Both the position numbers and the translations under genes were made by a program. A DNA stretch of 33,205 bases, from the NCBI GenBank assembly GCA_902594485.1, contig CACJMJ010000010.1, positions 1-33,205 of the forward strand, in the 5' to 3' direction. The notes under the pieces were generated by a model. It made no database searches, had not been told where the DNA came from, and saw only the letters and a list, made by a program, of their open reading frames with translations. Origin of the DNA: an uncultured Bacteroidota bacterium (GTDB lineage: Bacteria > Bacteroidota > Bacteroidia > Flavobacteriales > Flavobacteriaceae). Shown in pieces: positions 19,571 to 30,115 of this stretch; position 1 is the stretch's first letter; each line of letters begins with the position of its first letter.

Positions 19571-20533
19571 TTAAGTGAAGAAATTACTACATTTTCTATC
19601 AAATTCTAAAAGATCACTCTTATCAAAATCAATAAATAAATTATTAGTATCCTTTATTGGTGCTGAATTATAAAAGTATATTTCATCTTTATTTAGGGTG
19701 CCTTTTATCTTATATTCCTTACCAATAAATGAAGTTTTTTCAACTTTTAATTTATGCTCTGATTTATCTACAATTTTAATTTTTTCAGGTCTTATATAAA
19801 GCTCTTTACCATCAACATGGATTCTGTTTAGATCTCCTAAAATTTTAGCACAATAACAATTAACTGGATTACAATACATCTCCTCTGGTTTATCATATTG
19901 CTGAACTATTCCTGCTTTAAAAACAAGTATTCTATCTGAAATATCAAAAGTGTCTTTTATATCATGAGTAACTAGAATTGTAGTAGTGTTTGTACTTTTT
20001 AATATTTTATATACTTCATTTTGAATTTTTGATTTAATACTAACATCCAGATTACTAAATGGCTCATCCATAAGAAGAAGATCGGGTTCTCTAATCAAAG
20101 CACGTGTTATACATACTCTTTGTTGTTCTCCACCAGATAATTCGTGAGGATATCGATTTAATAAATTACCCAGCCCAGTAAGTTCGACATAGTACTCAAT
20201 ATTTTTTTCATATTGTTTTTCCAGGTTTATTTTCAGATTCTCTAAAACACTTAGATGCGGAAAGAGAGGATAGTCCTGAAAAATAAATCCAATTTTCCTA
20301 TGGTTTGGTTTTATAAAGGTTGTTTTATTATCTAAAACTCTATTGTTTAATGTAATTTTTCCAGAATTTATTTTTTCAAGACCTGCTAAACATTTCAAAA
20401 AAGTTGTTTTTCCAGAACCACTCTCTCCAATAAAAGAGACAAATTCTCCTTTCTGAACAGAAAAATTTAAATCCTTAATTAATGGATCTTCTTTACTGTA
20501 AAACTTAACTAAATTTTCAATGTTAAGATACAT
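19571..20533 (-). CDS. fbpC: Ferric iron ABC transporter, ATP-binding protein
   Basis: A 320-residue ABC ATPase. Walker A is GESGSGKT (36-43), the Q-loop Q86, signature LSGGEQQR (132-139), Walker B LLLMDEP (152-158) and H-loop H190 in VTHD. Residues about 235-320 form a short regulatory (TOBE-like) region, as in FbpC/PotA-type ATPases. The segment joining the two domains reads EEMYCNPVNCYCAKILGD: three cysteines (221, 226, 228) where most relatives have only Tyr-x-x-Pro and Phe-Val-Ala. The start overlaps the end of fbpB by 11 bp, typical of translational coupling. Iron specificity is inferred from the adjacent binding protein and TonB locus. Confidence 0.9.
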   Translation of the reverse strand: MYLNIENLVKFYSKEDPLIKDLNFSVQKGEFVSFIGESGSGKTTFLKCLAGLEKINSGKITLNNRVLDNKTTFIKPNHRKIGFIFQDYPLFPHLSVLENLKINLEKQYEKNIEYYVELTGLGNLLNRYPHELSGGEQQRVCITRALIREPDLLLMDEPFSNLDVSIKSKIQNEVYKILKSTNTTTILVTHDIKDTFDISDRILVFKAGIVQQYDKPEEMYCNPVNCYCAKILGDLNRIHVDGKELYIRPEKIKIVDKSEHKLKVEKTSFIGKEYKIKGTLNKDEIYFYNSAPIKDTNNLFIDFDKSDLLEFDRKCSNFFT

Positions 20534-22103
20534 CTACGCCTTTGTTTATAATTTTTCTCAAAAATATCAATAAAACTGCACCCAGTAAAATAATAATTAA
20601 AGAGTATATGGAAGATTTTGCAATCATTTCTTCTATTGCATACTCATATGTCCTTACAGCTAAAGTGTCAAAATTAAAAGGTCTTAGAATTAAAGTAATT
20701 GGCAACTCCTTAATTATATCAACAAAACATAAAATAAATGCAATATATATTGAGTTAATATTTATTGGTAAATGAATTTTTTTAAATAATTTAAAATTCG
20801 TCATCCCCAAATTCCTTCCAGTATCATCAAATGTCTCTGGATGTTTATCAAAGCTTGATCTAAGAGGAGATATTCCAACTGCCATATATCTCATTACATA
20901 AGCATATACCAATATTATGACTGATCCAAAAGCTATTGAAACTCCAATTAACTTTGTTAAATATGCTAAAAAAATAATAAGCGATAGAGCTATAACTGCT
21001 CCGGGTAAGGCATATGTAAGTGAGACTATCTCACTTAAGTAAAAAACAGTTTTACTTTTAGATATCTTTTTTATAAACTGAAAAAAAATTGCAATAGCAA
21101 CTATTATTAAAGATGAAACTGAAGCTAAAAAGAATGAGTTTAAGGATAGATTTATTAACTCTCTAAAGTCTATAATATCTATAGTTTTAAAAACATTATT
21201 TATTATATAAATAACTGGAATAAAGAAGCCTAATATAAATGGGAATAAACAGATCAAATATATAGTTATTCTTGAAAATTTATTTGTAGAATAGTTACCG
21301 GATACTTTATCATTTGGTTTATAATTATATCTATATTTTGATGTTGAATATCTTTCTAGTAAAAAGAAAATAGATACAATAATAAGTAAGCAAACAGCTA
21401 AGATTGATGCGGTATTTATATCTTCCATTGAATACCAAGATCTAAATATTCCACTTGTAAAAGTATTTATACCAAAGTACTTAACAGCGCCATATTCATT
21501 TAGTACCTCCATTATAATTAAAAATAAACCTGAGAAAATCGAAACTCTAGATATTGGTAAAATAATCTTGAAAAAAGTTTGAAACTGTGACATTCCAAGG
21601 TTTTTAGAAATATTAATATAATTTGATCCTAGAAGTGAAAAAGATATTCTACATGCAGTATATAAATAAGGGTATAAAACAAGTGCCATCAAAAATGCCA
21701 GAATTTCAATTTGCAAATAATCATGATTTACATACTTATAAAAATCAGGATAATTATTCCTTACTATACTTTGAATGGGACCAGTATAACTTAAAAGATC
21801 ACTGTATGTAAACGCAATTATATATGAAGGAATAGCTAAAGGCAAAAATAGTATAACATCAAAGAAGTTTTTCCCTTTGAAATTTGTTGTAGAAACAAAC
21901 CATGCAGGTATAATTCCAAGTATCAAAGAAAAAAAAACTGTTAGTAATAAAAGATAGAGTGTATTCAATGAATAACCCAATAGAAGATTATTCCATAAAT
22001 ACATAAATGTATCAAGACTTAGTCCAATTACACTATATAAAAGATAGATTAACGGACATAATAAAAAGAGAGAAATAAGTGATGTTAATAGTTTAACATT
22101 CAT
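20523..22103 (-). CDS. fbpB: Ferric iron ABC transporter, fused permease
   Basis: A 526-residue inner-membrane protein with two homologous permease halves, about 12 helices in total, as in FbpB/SfuB. Each half has an EAA-type loop that contacts the ATPase: NISKNLGMSQFQTFFKIILP (164-183) in the first half and DDTGRNLGMTNFKLFKKIHLP near residue 430 in the second. It lies 19 bp downstream of fbpA and overlaps fbpC by 11 bp, completing a three-gene operon. Confidence 0.92.
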   Translation of the reverse strand: MNVKLLTSLISLFLLCPLIYLLYSVIGLSLDTFMYLWNNLLLGYSLNTLYLLLLTVFFSLILGIIPAWFVSTTNFKGKNFFDVILFLPLAIPSYIIAFTYSDLLSYTGPIQSIVRNNYPDFYKYVNHDYLQIEILAFLMALVLYPYLYTACRISFSLLGSNYINISKNLGMSQFQTFFKIILPISRVSIFSGLFLIIMEVLNEYGAVKYFGINTFTSGIFRSWYSMEDINTASILAVCLLIIVSIFFLLERYSTSKYRYNYKPNDKVSGNYSTNKFSRITIYLICLFPFILGFFIPVIYIINNVFKTIDIIDFRELINLSLNSFFLASVSSLIIVAIAIFFQFIKKISKSKTVFYLSEIVSLTYALPGAVIALSLIIFLAYLTKLIGVSIAFGSVIILVYAYVMRYMAVGISPLRSSFDKHPETFDDTGRNLGMTNFKLFKKIHLPININSIYIAFILCFVDIIKELPITLILRPFNFDTLAVRTYEYAIEEMIAKSSIYSLIIILLGAVLLIFLRKIINKGVDVS

Positions 22104-22122
22104 CTTTTGATGCTTTTAGATT

Positions 22123-23142
22123 CTACTTCCAACCTCCAGCGTCAAATATACGAATTGCATCATTTCTTCTAATTCCTAACATATTCAAATCAAGAGGATC
22201 TTTTTTAAAAGTTCCCCACTCTTTTACAATATCATTCGGCTCAATATTTGGTTTTACTGAGTATTCATATGTATTATTTACATATATGTCTTGAGCCTCA
22301 TCACTTGTTAAATATTCGATTAGTTTAACTGCGTTTGATTTGTTTGGAGCATTTTTTGCAAGAGCAACTCCAGAAACATTTATATGAGAACCTCTTTCTC
22401 CATCTGCTTGATTTGGAAAAAACACTGATATTGATTTACCTGCATTTACTTCCTCTTCATTTTCTGATGAAAGTAAAAGCCCAATATAATATGAGTTTAC
22501 AATAGCAACATCTCCCTGACCAGCAGCTATTGCTTTTACTTGGTCTCTATCATTTCCTTTTGGATCTCTTGCAAAGTTTGAGACCACTGCATTAGTCCAA
22601 TTTTGTGTGGCTTCTTCTCCTAAGTTAGCAACAAGAGAAGACATAAGAGCTTGATTGTATGAATTGGATGATGATCTTACTAAAAGTCTTCCTTTCCATT
22701 TTTGATTTGCTAAATCTTCATATGTTGATAGATCACTTTCTTTAACTCTTTCATTACTGTATACAAGAATTCTTGATCTGTAAGTAACTGGCACCCAAAA
22801 ACCATTTGGGTCTATTAAGCTTTCTGTGATTCCCTCTGTTAAACTGTCATCATTATATTTTTGAAGCAGATCCATATCAGATGCTTGCCATAATTTACCA
22901 ACATCAACTGTTATAAATAAATCTGCTGGGCTATTCTCACCTTCATTTTTCATTCTTTGAATTAATTCATCAGCATTAGCCTTGATTACATTTACTTTTA
23001 TACCTGTTTTTTTTTCAAAATTGTCATACTGAAGTTGATCAACATCATAGTGTCTCTGACTATACATATTAACAATTTGTTCCGAATTATTATTTGAACA
23101 AGCTAAAATAAATAGGGCGAGAAGAAGGAATAATTTTTTCAT
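22123..23142 (-). CDS. fbpA: Ferric iron ABC transporter, substrate-binding lipoprotein (FbpA/FutA type)
   Basis: A 339-residue protein from the ATG at 23142; the longer frame from a TTG at 23163 would spoil the signal. MKKLFLLLALFILAC is a lipoprotein signal with lipidated Cys15. The mature start NMYSQRHYDVDQLQYDNFEKK resembles FutA-type proteins, whose early Tyr and His help bind Fe(III). The paired tyrosines of the family occur in VNSYYIGLL. It presumably captures ferric iron in the periplasm and passes it to FbpBC. The gene is divergent from the imelysin operon and shares the intergenic region with three palindromic boxes. Confidence 0.93.
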   Translation of the reverse strand: MKKLFLLLALFILACSNNNSEQIVNMYSQRHYDVDQLQYDNFEKKTGIKVNVIKANADELIQRMKNEGENSPADLFITVDVGKLWQASDMDLLQKYNDDSLTEGITESLIDPNGFWVPVTYRSRILVYSNERVKESDLSTYEDLANQKWKGRLLVRSSSNSYNQALMSSLVANLGEEATQNWTNAVVSNFARDPKGNDRDQVKAIAAGQGDVAIVNSYYIGLLLSSENEEEVNAGKSISVFFPNQADGERGSHINVSGVALAKNAPNKSNAVKLIEYLTSDEAQDIYVNNTYEYSVKPNIEPNDIVKEWGTFKKDPLDLNMLGIRRNDAIRIFDAGGWK

Positions 23143-23183
23143 ATCTGACTTATTAAAGCACAATATTAAAAAAAATTATTTTT

Positions 23184-23202
23184 ATTTAGACTAATTCTAA
23201 AT
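23184..23202. promoter_or_regulatory. Iron-box-like palindrome A
   Basis: ATTTAGACTAATTCTAAAT: 7-bp perfect arms with a 5-bp centre. The inverted symmetry extends three more bases on each side (23181-23205). It lies 42-60 bp upstream of fbpA and is best placed to control that operon. Confidence 0.75.
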
Positions 23203-23228: not shown

Positions 23229-23247
23229 ATTTAGAACGGTTCTAAAT
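23229..23247. promoter_or_regulatory. Iron-box-like palindrome B
   Basis: ATTTAGAACGGTTCTAAAT: 8-bp perfect arms around CGG. An extra half-site ATTTAGA follows at 23249-23255, exactly 20 bp after the first half-site. It is central in the divergent region. Confidence 0.8.
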
Positions 23248-23273: not shown

Positions 23274-23292
23274 ACTTAGGACCGTTCTAAAT
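23274..23292. promoter_or_regulatory. Iron-box-like palindrome C
   Basis: ACTTAGGACCGTTCTAAAT: right arm perfect, left arm with two changes. It ends 16 bp before the DUF4856 start codon, where binding would block transcription or initiation of the plus-strand operon. Confidence 0.7.
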
Positions 23293-23308: not shown

Positions 23309-24547
23309 ATGAAAATTATAAAAAAAATTAATCATAAACCAATATTATTTTTATTACTAACATCAATCTTTTTTACATCATGTTCGAAAGATGATGAAGT
23401 TGAATATATAACACAAACTGTAACTGAGACTGTTGTAGTAACTGAAACACAAACTGTGACTGTTGAAGTTCCTGTTACACAAACTGTGACTGTTGAGATT
23501 CCTTACTCTTATGAATTTGCAAGAGCTGGAAAACCTACTGTTTCTTTTTCAGGACAAACAGCAAGACTTAATATGGCTGATGAGCTTTATTCTGCATTAA
23601 ATACAAATACATTTTCAAAAGCGAAGATGCTTGAGATGTTTAATGACGGAACTGGATTTACAGACGCAGCACTAAATTCATCTGGTAAAAAGATGGGTAA
23701 TAAAACAGCTGCTTCACCTTTAGCTTCAGCTACAGTTAAGCCTCAATTTGATGCAATGATTGCTGATTTTGCAGACAATGTAATTCCTAATTGGGCAACA
23801 GATGCATCTAATGGTCAAGCGGGAGTTTTAACTGATGTTGCTAGAACTATTCATGTAAATGCAAAAGGTCATGAGATTGATCAAACATTTATCAAGGGAA
23901 TCATTGGAGCAATGACTCTTGATCAAATAGTAAATAACTATATAACTCCATATCAGTTGGATTCAGGAACAAGAACTGCAGATAACACAAACAAAACATT
24001 GTCTAGTGGAAAGGATTATACTGACATGGAACACAAGTGGGATGAAGGCTTTGGATATCTTTATGGTCAAGAAGCTGATGCTTCTAGATTGGACTTAGGT
24101 GTTTCACCTACTGGGAATGGAACGACACTAAATAAATACTTTAAAAAGGTTAATGCCAGCAGTCATCCAGGTATGGCAGTTCAAGTATTCGATGCATTTA
24201 GAAGAGGAAGAGCTTACATTGTTGCTAATCAATATGACAAAAGAGACGAACAAGCTGAAATAATTAAAAAAGAATTATCAAAGCTTATTGCACAGAAAGC
24301 TGTTGATTACATTAACGGTTATATGTCTAAAATTGCGGATGGAAATACAGCTGATGCATTCCATGCACTATCAGAAGGTTATGGTTTTGTAATGAGTCTT
24401 CAGTTCACAAATGACGGAACAGATACGCCATATTTCAGCAACTCTGAAGTAAATGCATTTTTAGCTTCTATGGATAATTTCTGGACTGTTGAGAATTCGA
24501 CTCTTGAGTCTATTAGAGATGAAGTAAAAGCAAAAGCTGGAATATAA
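23309..24547 (+). CDS. DUF4856 (imelysin-like) lipoprotein
   Basis: A 412-residue lipoprotein: LLTSIFFTSCSKDDE gives lipidated Cys25. A linker of TQTVTVEVP-type repeats (about 30-65) precedes the globular domain, which starts RAGKPTVSFSGQTARLNMADEL. That start and the later DMEHKWDEGFGYLYG identify DUF4856, a family found in Bacteroidota and related in fold to imelysin. Biochemical function is not established; imelysin relatives such as EfeO and IrpA are iron-linked. It is the first gene of a five-gene iron-type operon, directly behind palindrome C. A terminator follows it (24592-24625), so it may be more abundant than the genes downstream. Confidence 0.88.
   Translation: MKIIKKINHKPILFLLLTSIFFTSCSKDDEVEYITQTVTETVVVTETQTVTVEVPVTQTVTVEIPYSYEFARAGKPTVSFSGQTARLNMADELYSALNTNTFSKAKMLEMFNDGTGFTDAALNSSGKKMGNKTAASPLASATVKPQFDAMIADFADNVIPNWATDASNGQAGVLTDVARTIHVNAKGHEIDQTFIKGIIGAMTLDQIVNNYITPYQLDSGTRTADNTNKTLSSGKDYTDMEHKWDEGFGYLYGQEADASRLDLGVSPTGNGTTLNKYFKKVNASSHPGMAVQVFDAFRRGRAYIVANQYDKRDEQAEIIKKELSKLIAQKAVDYINGYMSKIADGNTADAFHALSEGYGFVMSLQFTNDGTDTPYFSNSEVNAFLASMDNFWTVENSTLESIRDEVKAKAGI
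23447..23503 (+). repeat. 30-bp repeat encoding the VTQTVTVEVP linker
   Basis: Two nearly identical units of about 30 bp, beginning acacaaactgtgactgttga, with a more diverged copy just before. They encode VTQTVTVE followed by VP or IP: a Thr/Val-rich spacer between the lipidated Cys and the DUF4856 domain. Confidence 0.7.
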
Positions 24548-24638: not shown

Positions 24639-25886
24639 ATGAAACATTTATATATTAAAATTTTTATTGCCTTACTTGTAATAGTATCATGTAGTAAGGA
24701 CTCTGATGAAGATTATGGTCAAAATAGTTCTCAGAGTAATGTTCAAACAACAACAAATAGTTCTAGTGGCTCGACAACTGGTACTACAACAGGTACTTCA
24801 ACTGGCACTACAACGGGTACTTCAACTGGCACTACAACTGGCACTACAACTGATAGCTCTTCAAGCCAAGGAGATACTTTTGATAGAGGTTCAATTTTAG
24901 CAAACTATTCTGAAAATATTATTATACCAAGATATAATACATTCAAATCATCTATGGATATCCTAAAAAATAGTATTGAGACTTTTGTTAATTCTCCTAA
25001 TTCTGATAATTATGATGCACTTCAAACTGACTGGATAGATTCATATAAAAAATGGCAATATGTTGAAGTTTTTAATATCAGTAAAGCGGAGGAAATTATG
25101 TATGGATTAAAAATGAACACCTACCCAGTTAGTAAAGAAAGAACTGATAATAATATTGATGAAGGAAAAACTGATCTTACGAATCCTAATGATTGGTCTG
25201 CCCAAGGTTTTCCTGGACTAGATTATATGCTTCACGGAATTGGTGAAACAAAAGATGCTGTAATTGAATTATACAGTTCTGAATCAAAATATGGCAATTA
25301 TTTACTCACTTTAGGTTCTGTAATGAATGAGAATACCATCCAAGTTGTTGATGATTGGACTACGTATAAAGATGTTTTTAATTCATCTGTAGATAATACT
25401 GCTACATCAGCATTCAATATGATGGTCAATGATTTTGTATATTATTTTGAAAAAGGTCTTAGAACAAACAAAATTGGAATTCCTGCTGGAAGATTCTCCT
25501 CTACTCCACTTCCTGATAAAATTGAAGCCTATTATTACTCAAAAAACTCTTTTGGAAATCTTTCAAAAACTCTTGCTCTAGAATCAAGAAAGGGAGTTGA
25601 AGAATTATTCCTTGGTTTAAACTCAGATGGTGTCGAGGGTCCTAGTTACAAATCTTATCTAGACTATCTTGAAACAGAAATAGGAAATAGTGTAAAAACT
25701 AAATTGGAAGAAGCAACTTTAAGTTTAAATGATTTACAAGATAATTTCTTAACTCAAATTGCAGAAAACAATACTTTGATGCTAGTCGCTTTTGATGCAC
25801 TTCAAACAATTGTTGTAAATTTAAAGACTGACATGTTATCTAACTTTAACATTGCGGTAGACTACACTGATGCAGATGGTGATTAA
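24639..25886 (+). CDS. Imelysin (peptidase M75-like) family lipoprotein
   Basis: A 415-residue lipoprotein: MKHLYIKIFIALLVIVSC places the lipidated Cys at 18. A spacer of Ser/Thr/Gly repeats (about 28-75, six GTxT units) leads to an all-helical imelysin domain. That domain carries the family landmark QGFPGLDYMLHG (188-199) and a C-terminal half with similar helices, as in the two-bundle fold. Imelysin proteins include bacterial iron-regulated IrpA and EfeO-like ferric-binding proteins; despite the peptidase M75 label, proteolysis is not shown for most. It is probably exposed on the outer membrane or periplasmic face and works with the TonB receptor two genes on. The HTTM gene follows after 13 bp. 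Confidence 0.88.
   Translation: MKHLYIKIFIALLVIVSCSKDSDEDYGQNSSQSNVQTTTNSSSGSTTGTTTGTSTGTTTGTSTGTTTGTTTDSSSSQGDTFDRGSILANYSENIIIPRYNTFKSSMDILKNSIETFVNSPNSDNYDALQTDWIDSYKKWQYVEVFNISKAEEIMYGLKMNTYPVSKERTDNNIDEGKTDLTNPNDWSAQGFPGLDYMLHGIGETKDAVIELYSSESKYGNYLLTLGSVMNENTIQVVDDWTTYKDVFNSSVDNTATSAFNMMVNDFVYYFEKGLRTNKIGIPAGRFSSTPLPDKIEAYYYSKNSFGNLSKTLALESRKGVEELFLGLNSDGVEGPSYKSYLDYLETEIGNSVKTKLEEATLSLNDLQDNFLTQIAENNTLMLVAFDALQTIVVNLKTDMLSNFNIAVDYTDADGD
24780..24851 (+). repeat. Six 12-bp repeats encoding GTxT units
   Basis: Six consecutive units of the form GG(T/C)ACT(A/T)CAAC(n), alternating GTTT and GTST codons. In-frame change in copy number would lengthen or shorten the spacer between the lipid anchor and the imelysin domain. 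The Thr/Ser density makes it a plausible O-glycosylation region. Confidence 0.9.
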
Positions 25887-25899
25887 CTAACATATTTCA

Positions 25900-27255
25900 T
25901 TGAATATTTCAAAATATTTAAATAAAAAACAAGACTCTTCAAGCCTAGCAATTTTTCGACTAGGCTTTGGTTTTTTAATGCTATATAGCACTATAAGAAT
26001 ATGGTATAAAGGGTGGATTAGGGAGTTGTATATCGATCCATCATTTCATTTCTCGTATTATGGCTTTGAATGGGTAAAACCAATTGGAGACTATACTTAT
26101 TTAATCTTTTTATTATGTGCAATATCATCATTTTTTGTAGCAATTGGATATAAATATAGAATCTCAATTATTTTACTCTTCTTAAGTTTTACATATGCAG
26201 AGCTAATGGATAAAACAACTTATCTTAACCATTATTATTTGGTTAGCCTGATAAGTTTTCTAATGATCTTTTTTCCTGCAAACGCAAAGTTTTCAATAGA
26301 TAATTTAATTAGTAAAAAATCATACGAATTTATACCCAAGTGGAATGTAGACGCCATAAAATTAATGATCTGTATAGTATACTTTTATGCAGGAATTGCA
26401 AAGATTAATAGTGATTGGCTTATTGATGCTCAACCATTAAAAATCTGGTTAACATCCAAATATGATCTTCCAATTTTTGGTGGTACATTATTTCAGATGG
26501 ATTGGGTTCATGTTTTTTTTAGTTGGGCTGGTATGTTTTATGATCTCTTAATTGCATTCATTTTATTGTATAGAAGGACAAGACCATTTGGATTTTTTCT
26601 TGTAATAACTTTTCATATAATGACAGCGATTCTTTTTCCTGCGATAGGTATGTTCCCTTACATAATGATTACATCTTCTATAATTTTTTTAGAGCCGCAA
26701 ACTCATAAAAAAATATTAGATAGAGTTTCTTCTATATTTAGAAAATACTTCCAAAAAGTGTCTTCTATATCAAATTATAATTTCAAAAAAGCTAAATTTT
26801 CTCAAACTATTTTAGTCATTTTCTTTTCTATCCAGTTACTTTTTCCATTTAGATATTTTCTTTACCCTGGAGAATTATTTTGGAATGAACAAGGATATAG
26901 ATTCTCTTGGAGAGTTATGCTTATAGAGAAAAAAGGGTTCACAGAGTTTAAAATAGTTGACGGAGAAACATCAGAATCATTTTATGTTTTAAATGAAGAG
27001 TTTTTAACTGAGTTTCAAGAAAGACAGATGAGTTTTCAACCAGACTTTATACTAGAATATGCACATTATCTTGGTGACTATTACAATAATAATGGGTATA
27101 ATAATGTTGAAGTTTATGCAGAGAGTTATGTGACATTAAATGGAAGGGAAAGTAAAGTATTTGTTGACCCAAATATTGACTTAATGAAAGAAGAGAGAGG
27201 CTTTTCAAACAAAGAATGGATAACAGAATTAGAGGATGAAATTAAAGGTTTTTAA
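25900..27255 (+). CDS. HTTM / vitamin K-dependent gamma-carboxylase-like membrane protein
   Basis: A 451-residue protein with an N-terminal multi-helix HTTM domain (about 12-265) and a soluble C-terminal part. Similarity to human gamma-glutamyl carboxylase can be read by eye. MDKTTYLNHYYL (103-114) corresponds to DKTSWNNHSYL with its catalytic His160; YFYAGIAKINSDWL (161-174) corresponds to YFIAGVKKLDADW with catalytic base Lys218, here K168. IGMFPYIMITSS corresponds to IGMFSYVMLASS. The C-terminal EYAHYLGDYY and SYVTLNGRESKVFVDPNIDL match the enzyme's C-terminal segment too. Carboxylases turn Glu to Gla using reduced vitamin K; this organism's menaquinone would be the analogue. The start is TTG (25900): an in-frame stop lies 9 bp upstream and no ATG occurs before residue 27. 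It overlaps the TonB receptor gene by 20 bp. Confidence 0.88.
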   Translation: MNISKYLNKKQDSSSLAIFRLGFGFLMLYSTIRIWYKGWIRELYIDPSFHFSYYGFEWVKPIGDYTYLIFLLCAISSFFVAIGYKYRISIILLFLSFTYAELMDKTTYLNHYYLVSLISFLMIFFPANAKFSIDNLISKKSYEFIPKWNVDAIKLMICIVYFYAGIAKINSDWLIDAQPLKIWLTSKYDLPIFGGTLFQMDWVHVFFSWAGMFYDLLIAFILLYRRTRPFGFFLVITFHIMTAILFPAIGMFPYIMITSSIIFLEPQTHKKILDRVSSIFRKYFQKVSSISNYNFKKAKFSQTILVIFFSIQLLFPFRYFLYPGELFWNEQGYRFSWRVMLIEKKGFTEFKIVDGETSESFYVLNEEFLTEFQERQMSFQPDFILEYAHYLGDYYNNNGYNNVEVYAESYVTLNGRESKVFVDPNIDLMKEERGFSNKEWITELEDEIKGF

Positions 27256-29659
27256 AATATTAATTATTCTGAGTTTTAACTCACTATTCTCTCAGGAGAA
27301 TTTAAGTGGAGTTATTATAAGCGAATCAACTAATCTACCACTTGAAAATGTGACAATTTTCAACTCTGAAACAAATGAAATCTCTTATAGTGATTCTGAG
27401 GGTAAGTTTATTATTTCAATAAATAATATTGATTCAGAAATAAACTTTTTTCTTGAAGGATATAACCTTTTATCTAAAATTTTCGGTCCACAAGTTTCAG
27501 AATCAAATAATGTCACTATTAGATTGGCTCCAAGAATTGAGGAATTAAATGAAGTTGTGGTAAGGGCAAACCTAAAAAAGATTTTTCAAATTAAAAGATT
27601 TCAAGATGTTGAGGGAACAAGAATATATGCTGGGAAAAAGAATGAGGTGATTCTTATTGATGTTTCAATGGCAAATCTTGCATCAAATAATGCCCGTCAA
27701 ATTTATAATCAGATTCCAGGACTCAATATATATCAAAATGATGATGCTGGACTTCAACTTAATATAGGTGGAAGAGGGCTTAACCCAAATAGAACTGCCA
27801 ATTTTAATACAAGACAAAATAATTATGATATAAGTGCAGATGCATTAGGGTATCCTGAAAGTTATTATACACCACCACCTGAAGGTCTTGAAGAAATTCA
27901 AATATTAAGGGGTGCAGCTTCACTTCAATATGGAACTCAATTTGGTGGGCTTATTAATTTTAAAATTAAGAAACCCAAACCTGAGGAAAGATTTGAGCTG
28001 ATTACTAGAAATACTGCTGGTTCAAATAATCTATTTACAAATTTTACGAGTGTTAGCTCAAGTAATGAAAAATCTAGTTATTATGGTTATGTTAATTATA
28101 AAAATGGAGATGGTTTTAGACCTAACTCTGAGTTTGAATCAATTAATACATTTCAGAATTTCAATTATAATTTAAATGAAAAGTCAAAAATAACAGGAGA
28201 GATAACATACATGGAATATCTTGCTCATCAGGCAGGAGGACTTTCAGATTTTATGTTTGCTAATGATCCTTTTCAAAGTAATAGAGAGAGAAATTGGTTT
28301 GAAATAAAATGGTTTTTATATAATCTAAAATACTTACTTCAAATTTCAGAAGATTCAAGCTTTAGTTTTAATTTTTTTGGTCTAGACGCACAAAGAAATT
28401 CATTAGGTTTTAGAACAAATAGAGTTGATCAAATTGATTATGGTGAAGAAAGAGATTTGATTAAAGGGGACTTCAAAAATTTTGGCTTTGAATCAAGATA
28501 TCTTACTAGCTTTAATTTTTTAAATAAAAAATCTTATCTACTCCTAGGAGCTAAATACTATAATTCATTTTCTCAAAGTGTTCAAGGTCCTGGAAGTAGT
28601 TCTAAGGATGCTGATTTTAATTTTGATTATATAAATTTCCCAAACTATGTAAATCAATCTGAGTACAGTTATCCTAATAATAATTTGGCAATCTTTGGTG
28701 AAAATATTTTTTATATAAATGAAAGTTTATCCATAACACCTGGGTTTAGGTTTGAGAACATAAATACTAGTCTAGATGGTTACTACAGAAAAATTAATCT
28801 AGATGCTGCAGGTAACACAATTTATAATGAAAGATTTGATGAAGAGGATACCAAGAAAAGAAAGTTTCTATTACTTGGTTTAGGACTTAGTTACAAAAAA
28901 AGGGGGCTTGAATTATATACAAATATCAGTCAAAACTTTAGATCTGTAACATTTGCAGATATAAGTATTAGTAACCCTGCTTATGCTATAAATCCTAATA
29001 TTGATGATGAGAAAGGGTTTACATTTGATATAGGTTTTAGAGGAAACTATAAAAAAATGATTTCCTTTGACTCTAGTATTTTTGCACTTATATATAGAGA
29101 CAGGATTGGGTTTATCCAAAAAGTATTTAGTGATGGTAATGTGAAGAGTGAGAGAGGTAATGTAGGGAATGCCCAAATAACAGGTGTTGAATCTTTATTT
29201 GATTTTGATATAAATGAAATTCTATTTAAAAATGAAGATGTAGATTTTAATATTTTTTTTAATTATTCTTATATAGAATCTAAATATTTAAAATCTAATG
29301 AAGTAGGAATAACAGGAAAAGAAGTTGAATTTGTTCCTAAAAATAATTTTAAAACAGGTTTAAAATTTGGTTATAAAGATTTTGCAATTAATTTTCAATA
29401 TTCATACCTGTCAAGTCAATTTACAGACTCTTCAAATGCTATATCAGGAAATCTAAGTGGAGTAATTGGTCAAATTCCTTCCTATGAAATTTCTGATTTA
29501 TCAATGTCATACAAACTAAGAAACATTAAATTTGAAGCTGGAGTCAATAATTTATTTGATGAAATATATTTTACAAGGAGAGCCACAGGATATCCTGGCC
29601 CCGGAATAATTCCTTCTCCTCCAAGAAATAGTTATATAACTTTAGAAATCAAACTATGA
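27236..29659 (+). CDS. TonB-dependent outer-membrane receptor, FecA-like
   Basis: An 807-residue receptor. The signal peptide ends near LFSQ (about 19-20). A carboxypeptidase-regulatory-like beta domain (about 22-100) is followed by the plug (about 125-245), containing QIPGLNIYQNDD, GGRGLNPNRTANF, DALGYPESYYTPPPEGLE and ILRGAASLQYGTQFGG, a set typical of the ferric-dicitrate/FecA branch in Bacteroidota. A 22-strand barrel makes up the rest, ending YITLEIKL. The ligand, probably a ferric chelate, is inferred from plug similarity and the FbpABC neighbours. It starts within the HTTM gene and its stop overlaps the DCC gene start by 4 bp (ATGA). Confidence 0.94.
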   Translation: MKLKVFKILIILSFNSLFSQENLSGVIISESTNLPLENVTIFNSETNEISYSDSEGKFIISINNIDSEINFFLEGYNLLSKIFGPQVSESNNVTIRLAPRIEELNEVVVRANLKKIFQIKRFQDVEGTRIYAGKKNEVILIDVSMANLASNNARQIYNQIPGLNIYQNDDAGLQLNIGGRGLNPNRTANFNTRQNNYDISADALGYPESYYTPPPEGLEEIQILRGAASLQYGTQFGGLINFKIKKPKPEERFELITRNTAGSNNLFTNFTSVSSSNEKSSYYGYVNYKNGDGFRPNSEFESINTFQNFNYNLNEKSKITGEITYMEYLAHQAGGLSDFMFANDPFQSNRERNWFEIKWFLYNLKYLLQISEDSSFSFNFFGLDAQRNSLGFRTNRVDQIDYGEERDLIKGDFKNFGFESRYLTSFNFLNKKSYLLLGAKYYNSFSQSVQGPGSSSKDADFNFDYINFPNYVNQSEYSYPNNNLAIFGENIFYINESLSITPGFRFENINTSLDGYYRKINLDAAGNTIYNERFDEEDTKKRKFLLLGLGLSYKKRGLELYTNISQNFRSVTFADISISNPAYAINPNIDDEKGFTFDIGFRGNYKKMISFDSSIFALIYRDRIGFIQKVFSDGNVKSERGNVGNAQITGVESLFDFDINEILFKNEDVDFNIFFNYSYIESKYLKSNEVGITGKEVEFVPKNNFKTGLKFGYKDFAINFQYSYLSSQFTDSSNAISGNLSGVIGQIPSYEISDLSMSYKLRNIKFEAGVNNLFDEIYFTRRATGYPGPGIIPSPPRNSYITLEIKL

Positions 29660-30057
29660 GTAAAAGCTTAAATAATGAGATTATAATTTATGATGGTATA
29701 TGTGTGCTATGTAATTACTTTATTCAATTTATTTTAGAAAAAGATAGAAAGGCTCATTTTAAAGTAACAAATCTTCAAAGTGAATTTACAAAAACAAAAT
29801 ATCCAGAAATTCTAGCTGTTGATTCAGTTGCAGTTATTTTGGAAAATGGAAAAATTTTGCAAAAAAGTAAAGCAGTCTACTACATTTTACAAAAAATTAA
29901 AGTCTTACTATTAATCAGAGTTTTAATTTATGTTTTTCCAATATTTTTTTCAAATATAGTCTATGACTTTATTGCTCTGATTAGATACAAATTATTTGGA
30001 AAATACTCCTATTGTCCCGTACTCAAAGGGGATTTAAAAAATAGAATAATTGAATAA
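29656..30057 (+). CDS. DCC-family (DUF393) thiol-disulfide oxidoreductase
   Basis: A 133-residue protein with the defining motif YDGICVLCN (D13, C16, C19) near the N-terminus and the family's C-terminal RYKLFGK followed by a Cys-Pro (YSYCPVL). It contains a hydrophobic stretch (about 83-105) that may associate with the membrane. DCC proteins are predicted thiol-disulfide oxidoreductases with a thioredoxin-like fold; the partner is unknown. ATGA overlap with the receptor gene shows translational coupling. DCC domains are often found with HTTM proteins, as here, which suggests it may act on the HTTM enzyme or its quinone; this is inference. Confidence 0.9.
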   Translation: MSKSLNNEIIIYDGICVLCNYFIQFILEKDRKAHFKVTNLQSEFTKTKYPEILAVDSVAVILENGKILQKSKAVYYILQKIKVLLLIRVLIYVFPIFFSNIVYDFIALIRYKLFGKYSYCPVLKGDLKNRIIE

Positions 30058-30096: not shown

Positions 30097-30115
30097 ATTT
30101 AGAATAAATCTATAT
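30097..30115. promoter_or_regulatory. Iron-box-like palindrome upstream of hemA
   Basis: ATTTAGAATAAATCTATAT agrees with 13 of the 14 half-site positions of ATTTAGA-N5-TCTAAAT. It lies about 95-110 bp upstream of hemA and 40 bp after the DCC stop. The rest of 30058-30208 shows only a weak 5-bp hairpin after the DCC gene. Confidence 0.55.

What the first reader, a model, noticed from the sequence alone, without database searches (positions are those of the whole stretch)
25900..27255. HTTM protein keeps the catalytic Lys and His of gamma-glutamyl carboxylase and its C-terminal segment
Aligned from memory to human GGCX, K168 sits at the Lys218 catalytic base (AGIAKINSDW against AGVKKLDADW), and H111 sits at His160 (LNHYYL against NNHSYL). 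The C-terminal ESYVTLNGRESKVFVDP region also matches. Many bacterial HTTM proteins are divergent, so retention of these residues suggests real quinol-dependent chemistry. Menaquinone, usual in Bacteroidota, is itself a vitamin K.
Basis: partly seen in the sequence, partly recalled or inferred. Interest (0 to 1): 0.7.

Follow-up and report, generated by a model that had tools for sequence, protein, structure and literature searches.

The report
Vitamin K-carboxylase homologue in iron operon
A marine bacterium carries a full-length relative of the human enzyme that uses vitamin K to activate blood-clotting proteins, with its active site intact, inside an iron-scavenging operon that is conserved across the Bacteroidota, so the still unknown job of the bacterial version can now be tested in the context of iron uptake.

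Summary
P0001 (25900-27255 +, 451 aa) hits Pfam HTTM (7.8e-78) and VKGC_lumenal_dom (3.7e-57). It aligns with human GGCX residues 54-504 (E ~1e-44), and its AlphaFold model matches only GGCX in the PDB (TM 0.83). In 170 bacterial homologues K218, H160, N159, W223, G259, F286 and F299 never vary. The Lys alone is not diagnostic: 18/18 divergent HTTM-only proteins keep it too.

The larger result is context. P0001 belongs to a monophyletic clade that lies between an imelysin and a TonB-dependent receptor almost everywhere in Bacteroidota, usually after a DUF4856 lipoprotein. The promoter carries two exact Fur boxes, and 76 of 103 related loci have a box with at most one mismatch (about 3 expected). 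A published Riemerella dataset shows the orthologous genes induced by low iron.

Most likely this is a quinol/O2-dependent periplasm-facing enzyme serving an iron-uptake operon, probably carboxylating a partner. Neither substrate nor activity is shown. I first took the imelysin's invariant DGD C-terminus as a substrate signature, but withdrew that: Psychrobacter IPPA has it too. VKOR does not co-occur.

The parts
25900..27255 (+). P0001, bacterial vitamin K-dependent gamma-carboxylase (VKGC/GGCX) homologue, HTTM plus lumenal domain
25921..26697 (+). HTTM transmembrane domain (PF05090), residues 8-266; AF2 helices compatible with the TM helices of GGCX
26791..27237 (+). VKGC lumenal (periplasmic) domain PF22777, residues 298-446; lacks the GGCX segment 505-758
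26227..26232 (+). N110-H111 = GGCX N159-H160 (Glu side-chain pocket); invariant in 170/170 homologues
26401..26403 (+). K168 = GGCX K218, catalytic base; invariant in 170/170 VKGC homologues and 18/18 HTTM-only proteins
26896..26898 (+). Y333 = GGCX Y395 (Glu pocket); Tyr or Phe in this clade, His in the other bacterial clade
27121..27171 (+).
24639..25886 (+). Imelysin-fold lipoprotein of the IPPA (GxxxxE) type, C-terminus ...DADGD; directly upstream partner
23309..24547 (+). DUF4856 lipoprotein (weak similarity to FEA1-related lipoprotein); first gene of the operon
27236..29659 (+). TonB-dependent receptor (siderophore/FecA-like), directly downstream, overlapping the VKGC gene end
29656..30057 (+). 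DCC1-like (DUF393) thiol-disulfide oxidoreductase; present in 11 of 81 near loci only
23184..23202 (+). Fur-box-like palindrome ATTTAGACTAATTCTAAAT, exact match to the half-sites of the Riemerella Fur box
23229..23247 (+). Second exact Fur-box-like palindrome ATTTAGAACGGTTCTAAAT
23274..23292 (+). Third, imperfect Fur-box-like palindrome (2 mismatches)
19571..23163 (-). Divergent ABC transporter (solute-binding protein, double permease, ATPase; probably ferric iron), sharing the promoter region; only in closer relatives

Best explanation
P0001 is a full-length bacterial member of the GGCX/VKGC family with an intact quinol and acid-side-chain active site facing the periplasm. It belongs to an iron-starvation (Fur) operon: DUF4856 lipoprotein, IPPA-type imelysin lipoprotein, VKGC, TonB-dependent receptor. 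Proposed mechanism: K168 deprotonates a prenylated (naphtho)hydroquinone; with O2 this becomes the strongly basic alkoxide/epoxide; this abstracts a proton from an acidic side chain held by N110, H111 and Y333; CO2 adds, giving Gla (or carboxy-Asp) on a periplasmic partner. The partner is most likely the imelysin encoded immediately upstream, then DUF4856 or the receptor. The doubled carboxylates would serve metal (iron) binding or hand-over. Shown: family membership, conserved pocket, operon conservation, Fur boxes; iron induction of the orthologous genes is from a published dataset. Inferred: periplasmic orientation (from GGCX topology), quinol oxidation, carboxylation, substrate identity, role of the product.
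For: Family and fold: Pfam HTTM and VKGC_lumenal_dom; GGCX the only PDB sequence relative; AF2 model pLDDT 82.7, Foldseek hits 1-16 all GGCX, E down to 1.6e-20, TMq 0.83. Active site: N159, H160, K218, W223, G259, F286, F299 invariant in 170 homologues, pocket enrichment p ~4e-7 (pocket from PMC12589487). Operon: DUF4856-imelysin-VKGC-TBDT in at least 77 of 81 near loci; across the phylum this clade has imelysin and TBDT next to it in nearly every locus, including a Persicobacter megaplasmid for the imelysin. The clade is monophyletic, support 99. The DGD-tailed (IPPA-type) imelysin occurs in 72 of 72 genomes with this clade and in 0 of 324 others. Regulation: Fur box with 0-1 mismatch upstream of 76/103 operons against 0.1 (shuffles) or about 3 (random stretches) expected. 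Riemerella genes annotated TBDT, vitamin K-dependent gamma-carboxylase, imelysin and hypothetical (RAYM_09779-09794) rise 2.1- to 3.1-fold in low iron (PMC5609570).
Against: No activity data, and no Gla reported for these proteins in any paper found. No acceptor Glu specific to VKGC-linked imelysins was found: the DGD tail is also in Psychrobacter IPPA, E271 aligns with a Glu there too, and E296 is kept in the other imelysins aligned. Substrate-backbone residues N158 and R436 are replaced, and the second half of the propeptide clamp is absent. VKOR, which recycles the epoxide in animals, does not co-occur (19 of 83 genomes, p = 1). Menaquinone synthesis genes are not found in the window's lineage. 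From memory, the Leptospira orthologue was reported to epoxidise without carboxylating.
Confidence: 0.4

Rival explanations
1. Redox-partner model: P0001 oxidises quinol with O2 (epoxidation or simple oxidation) but does not carboxylate protein. It replaces the di-haem peroxidase (EfeB/DUF1111 type) that normally accompanies imelysins, supplying the redox step that releases, oxidises or reduces iron at the imelysin.
For: In three Bacteroidota genomes examined, DGD-tailed (IPPA-type) imelysins outside the VKGC operon lie directly downstream of a DHOR (PF06537) di-haem peroxidase gene and a canonical imelysin; [quoted passage not shown] In the operon studied here a quinol-binding enzyme stands beside the IPPA-type imelysin instead. 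No VKGC-specific acceptor Glu is evident.
Against: The Glu-binding residues N159 and H160 are kept as strictly as the quinone pocket and Y395 is Tyr or Phe, which a pure oxidase would not need. Animal VKGC epoxidises only with Glu bound (PMC9146348). The gene-neighbour swap is correlative.
Confidence: 0.27
2. The enzyme carboxylates or otherwise modifies a small molecule (for example a siderophore or citrate-like ligand) imported or exported with the TonB receptor, not a protein.
For: Tight linkage to a FecA/siderophore-like receptor; half of the protein-recognition clamp of GGCX is missing.
Against: No biosynthetic or export gene in the operon; the lumenal domain and its GGCX-type residues are kept.
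Confidence: 0.12
3. Non-catalytic role: the HTTM protein is a membrane scaffold, quinone-binding sensor or ferric permease-like component, and residue conservation reflects quinone binding only.
For: The operon has no dedicated inner-membrane iron permease in most loci.
Against: The catalytic Lys is kept in every HTTM protein examined, including very divergent ones, and the Glu pocket is kept too.
Confidence: 0.1
4. Ordinary annotation curiosity: a horizontally spread HTTM protein kept by operon inheritance, with no special link to iron.
For: Operon genes are inherited together, so co-occurrence is partly one event (tree).
Against: Fur boxes in 76 of 103 operons, measured low-iron induction in Riemerella, and conserved gene order at protein identities down to about 22% for the imelysin.
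Confidence: 0.06

Closest known systems
Human gamma-glutamyl carboxylase GGCX (PDB 9l6q, 9bvk, 9wfc and others)
   Same: Same fold over residues 54-504; catalytic Lys218, His160, Asn159, most of the naphthoquinone pocket and the first half of the lumenal domain.
   Different: Lacks residues 505-758 and the C99-C450 disulfide; N158L, K217A, N290T, M401V, R436Q; set in a bacterial iron operon; no VKOR partner.
Leptospira VKGC homologue and other bacterial HTTM/VKGC proteins (clade B here, ribF-linked in Flavobacteriia; Paracoccus plasmid homologue)
   Same: Bacterial HTTM plus lumenal domain with Lys218/His160.
   Different: Clade B has N290, H395, M401, R404, is not linked to imelysin or TBDT, and falls outside the clade of P0001. 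Leptospira was not compared here.
EfeUOB and Pseudomonas PA4370-PA4373-type imelysin operons
   Same: Fur-regulated, imelysin-fold lipoproteins, a redox enzyme in the same operon.
   Different: A VKGC and a TonB receptor in place of the di-haem peroxidase and EfeU permease; DUF4856 added.
Riemerella anatipestifer RAYM_09779-09794 (Fur study, PMC5609570)
   Same: By annotation, gene set and gene numbering, the same operon; listed as low-iron induced and already annotated as vitamin K-dependent gamma-carboxylase.
   Different: Listed in a table there without analysis of active site, conservation or function in the passages read; its sequence was not compared here.

Membership tests
GGCX/VKGC family (HTTM + VKGC lumenal domain) | HTTM domain over the curated cut-off | tested here: met
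   262 bits against cut-off 27.7
GGCX/VKGC family (HTTM + VKGC lumenal domain) | VKGC lumenal domain over the curated cut-off | tested here: met
   193 bits against cut-off 27.7
GGCX/VKGC family (HTTM + VKGC lumenal domain) | Catalytic Lys218 and His160 with Asn159 | tested here: met
   K168, H111, N110; invariant in 170 homologues
GGCX/VKGC family (HTTM + VKGC lumenal domain) | GGCX fold | tested here: met
   AF2 model, TMq 0.83, only GGCX below E 0.001; active-site loops 107-109 and 337-343 have low pLDDT, so exact geometry is not tested
GGCX/VKGC family (HTTM + VKGC lumenal domain) | Complete propeptide-binding clamp | tested here: not met
   Protein ends at the equivalent of GGCX ~504-510; this defines the animal enzyme, not the family
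GGCX/VKGC family (HTTM + VKGC lumenal domain) | Vitamin K hydroquinone epoxidation and Glu carboxylation | not testable with these tools
   Needs an enzyme assay and mass spectrometry
Vitamin K cycle | VKOR partner in the genome | tested here: not met
   VKOR in 19 of 83 VKGC genomes, expected by chance, p = 1
Vitamin K cycle | Menaquinone (vitamin K2) made by the organism | tested here: inconclusive
   MenA/B/D below cut-off and MqnC without a match in the own genome (58% complete) and 9 relatives; divergent PAS-UbiA with MenA-like similarity present
Imelysin (IPPA/GxxxxE) family, for the upstream gene | Imelysin fold, GxxxxE in place of GxHxxE, ...DGD C-terminus | tested here: met
   PF09375, Foldseek top hit 3pf0 IPPA, 3pf0 also ends DGD; the window has Asp at the Glu position
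Fur-regulated iron operon | Fur boxes upstream and iron-dependent expression | tested here: met
   Boxes. Expression only in Riemerella, from the literature, not in this organism

The most novel reading that the evidence does not exclude
Bacteria use vitamin K-type (quinol-, O2- and CO2-dependent) carboxylation to build carboxyglutamate metal sites on periplasmic iron-acquisition lipoproteins under Fur control, meaning that the animal clotting-factor modification has a bacterial counterpart in iron uptake.
Probability: 0.28. Interest if true: 0.9.

Novelty: new variant of a known kind. Interest (0 to 1): 0.58.

Why it matters
What bacterial relatives of the vitamin K carboxylase do is an open question. 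Placing a large, monophyletic, catalytically intact clade in a conserved Fur-controlled operon with two named lipoproteins and a receptor gives a defined condition (iron starvation), a short list of candidate substrates and a clear mutant (K168A) to test. If carboxylation is confirmed, Gla would be an iron-related bacterial modification. If not, a quinol-dependent enzyme standing where a haem peroxidase normally stands in imelysin operons would be a new type of iron-uptake redox step.

Tried and rejected
1) The imelysin C-terminal DxDGD tail as carboxylation substrate or VKGC recognition tag: it looked compelling (138 of 142 linked imelysins end exactly in DGD; 72/72 co-occurrence with this clade; absent from the 15 GxHxxE imelysins checked), but 3pf0 IPPA from Psychrobacter ends in DGD too, so it is a family trait and is not used as evidence. 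2) Loss of the GxHxxE His as a VKGC-specific change: rejected for the same reason (IPPA is GxxxxE, PMC3143127). 3) VKOR as epoxide-recycling partner: no co-occurrence. 4) DCC1-like protein as general partner: only in 11 of 81 near loci, though a DUF393 gene also neighbours the Paracoccus homologue. 5) Lys218 retention as proof of function: rejected, all HTTM proteins tested have it. 6) Clade B neighbours as a clue to substrate: only ribF and serS, named from sequence by eye, uninformative. 7) A conserved Glu unique to linked imelysins, DUF4856 or TBDT: none stood out.

Full report
WHAT WAS CHECKED. The ORF at 25900-27255 + encodes P0001, 451 aa with a TTG start. It hits Pfam HTTM (7.8e-78) and VKGC_lumenal_dom (3.7e-57), both far above the curated cut-offs. 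A sequence search of the PDB returns only human GGCX, E about 1e-44, aligned over nearly the whole protein. In that alignment K168 faces Lys218, H111 faces His160, and the C-terminal ESYVTLNGRESKVFVDP segment faces the GGCX lumenal domain. The AlphaFold model (mean pLDDT 82.7, pTM 0.84) matches GGCX structures and nothing else: Foldseek ranks 1-16 are all GGCX, best E 1.6e-20, TM-score 0.83, next hit E 0.09. Two active-site loops (107-109, 337-343) have low confidence, so the model supports the fold but not fine geometry.

ACTIVE SITE. Published GGCX structures place K218 at the quinone, N159, H160 and Y395 on the substrate Glu side chain, and a naphthoquinone pocket of F286, F294, F299, H160, V210, M401 and W223 (PMC12589487). 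P0001 keeps 12 of the 19 listed pocket residues although overall identity is 118/428. Across 170 bacterial homologues N159, H160, K218, W223, G259, F286, F299 and W399 never vary; 7 of 19 pocket residues are among only 15 columns invariant including GGCX, p about 4e-7. Changes are in residues that hold the substrate backbone (N158L, R436Q), in K217 (A) and in M401 (V) and N290 (T); the C99-C450 disulfide and the GGCX segment after ~504 are missing. As a control, 18 HTTM-only proteins without the lumenal domain were aligned: all keep the Lys, but the rest of the pocket is only partly kept. Lys retention by itself is therefore weak evidence; the whole pocket is strong evidence.

CONTEXT. The gene lies between an imelysin-fold lipoprotein (24639-25886) and a TonB-dependent receptor (27236-29659), behind a DUF4856 lipoprotein (23309-24547). 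In 81 near loci this order is kept in at least 77. A survey of 396 Bacteroidota genomes finds VKGC in 83. The homologues fall into two sequence types. Clade A, including P0001, has the signature L158/T290/Y or F395/V401, is one monophyletic group (SH-aLRT 99), and has an imelysin and a TBDT beside it in nearly every locus. Type B (N290, H395, M401, R404) is not linked to them; in Flavobacteriia it follows ribF and precedes serS, as I name them from the sequences. The Paracoccus albus and Bernardetia plasmid homologues carry the type B residues at 290, 395 and 401, whereas the Persicobacter psychrovividus one is clade A with its own imelysin next door.

REGULATION. The 146-bp region upstream of the operon holds two exact ATTTAGANNNNNTCTAAAT palindromes and a third imperfect one. 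This matches the predicted Riemerella Fur box ATTTAGAATTATTCTAAAT (PMC5609570). Upstream of 103 related operons, 76 have a site with at most one mismatch, against 0.1 expected from shuffles and about 3 from random stretches of the same loci. In Riemerella the corresponding genes, by annotation and gene order, are 2.1 to 3.1 times higher in low iron (PMC5609570 Table 4). The text search found no other paper that names this carboxylase together with imelysin.

THE IMELYSIN PARTNER, AND A CORRECTION. The linked imelysins end exactly in ...DGD in 138 of 142 cases and lack the His of GxHxxE. The DGD-tailed form occurs in 72 of 72 genomes with clade A and in none of the other 324. Canonical imelysins in the same or other genomes keep GxHxxE and lack the tail. 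I first read the tail as a carboxylation substrate or tag. A PDB search then showed that IPPA from Psychrobacter (3pf0), the type member of the GxxxxE imelysins, also ends in DGD. The tail is thus a trait of that imelysin family and is no evidence for carboxylation. What remains is a partnership pattern. IPPA-type imelysins of Bacteroidota outside this operon sit beside a di-haem peroxidase (DHOR) in three of three loci examined, as imelysins generally do (PMC3143127), whereas in this operon a VKGC stands beside them.

MECHANISM. Best-supported reading: a periplasm-facing, quinol- and O2-dependent VKGC acting on an acidic side chain of an operon protein. Steps shown: family, pocket, operon, Fur boxes; iron induction in Riemerella is from the literature. 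Steps inferred: orientation (from GGCX topology), quinol oxidation, proton abstraction, CO2 addition, identity of the substrate and a metal-binding purpose. The main rival keeps the quinol chemistry but drops carboxylation, making the enzyme a redox partner in place of the peroxidase. From memory (not tested here), the Leptospira homologue was described as an epoxidase without carboxylase activity, which favours the rival somewhat.

COFACTOR. VKOR is not associated with VKGC in this phylum (19 of 83, p = 1). MenB is below cut-off in the window's genome (58% complete) and in nine small-genome relatives, as are MenA and MenD, and MqnC has no match, although Algibacter and Kordia have MenA/B/D. 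The lineage has a MenA-like UbiA protein fused to a PAS domain; in the window's genome it stands beside a MenI-like thioesterase and a CAAX-like protease. A salvaged naphthoquinone precursor or another quinone is possible.

VERDICT. The protein is a new member of a known family; the Fur-controlled DUF4856-imelysin-VKGC-TBDT system is a variant not described in the papers found, although its genes are listed and annotated in one Fur dataset.

Noticed in passing
G000 (window's own genome) and relatives of L002-L012; L278:3942-6677: Small-genome marine relatives lack recognisable MenA, MenB, MenD and MqnC but carry a PAS-UbiA fusion with MenA-like similarity, in the window's genome flanked by a MenI-like thioesterase and an Rce1-like protease: a possible quinone-precursor salvage route.
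   Followed up: partly
L120, L123, L127, L131, L137, L138, L143-L146, L158-L163: A second VKGC type (clade B) in Flavobacteriia directly follows ribF (overlapping or nearly so) and often precedes serS, with no iron genes; function unknown.
   Followed up: partly
L296, L297, L298: IPPA-type imelysins outside the VKGC operon lie directly downstream of a DHOR di-haem peroxidase and a canonical imelysin, suggesting peroxidase and VKGC are alternative partners.
   Followed up: partly
window 30097-30115: Another Fur-box-like palindrome (1 mismatch) between the DCC1-like gene and hemA, hinting at iron control of haem synthesis genes.
   Followed up: no
window 23309-24547: The DUF4856 lipoprotein is weakly similar to the FEA1-related lipoprotein model (2.2e-7, below cut-off), which points to an iron-assimilation role.
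   Followed up: no
window 19571-23163: The divergent ferric-type ABC transporter shares the Fur-box promoter region only in closer marine relatives; in most Flavobacteriaceae loci it is absent from the neighbourhood.
   Followed up: partly
L133 (G108): A clade A VKGC gene with no imelysin or receptor beside it, while a DGD-tailed imelysin lies elsewhere in the same genome (C1:1993014).
   Followed up: no
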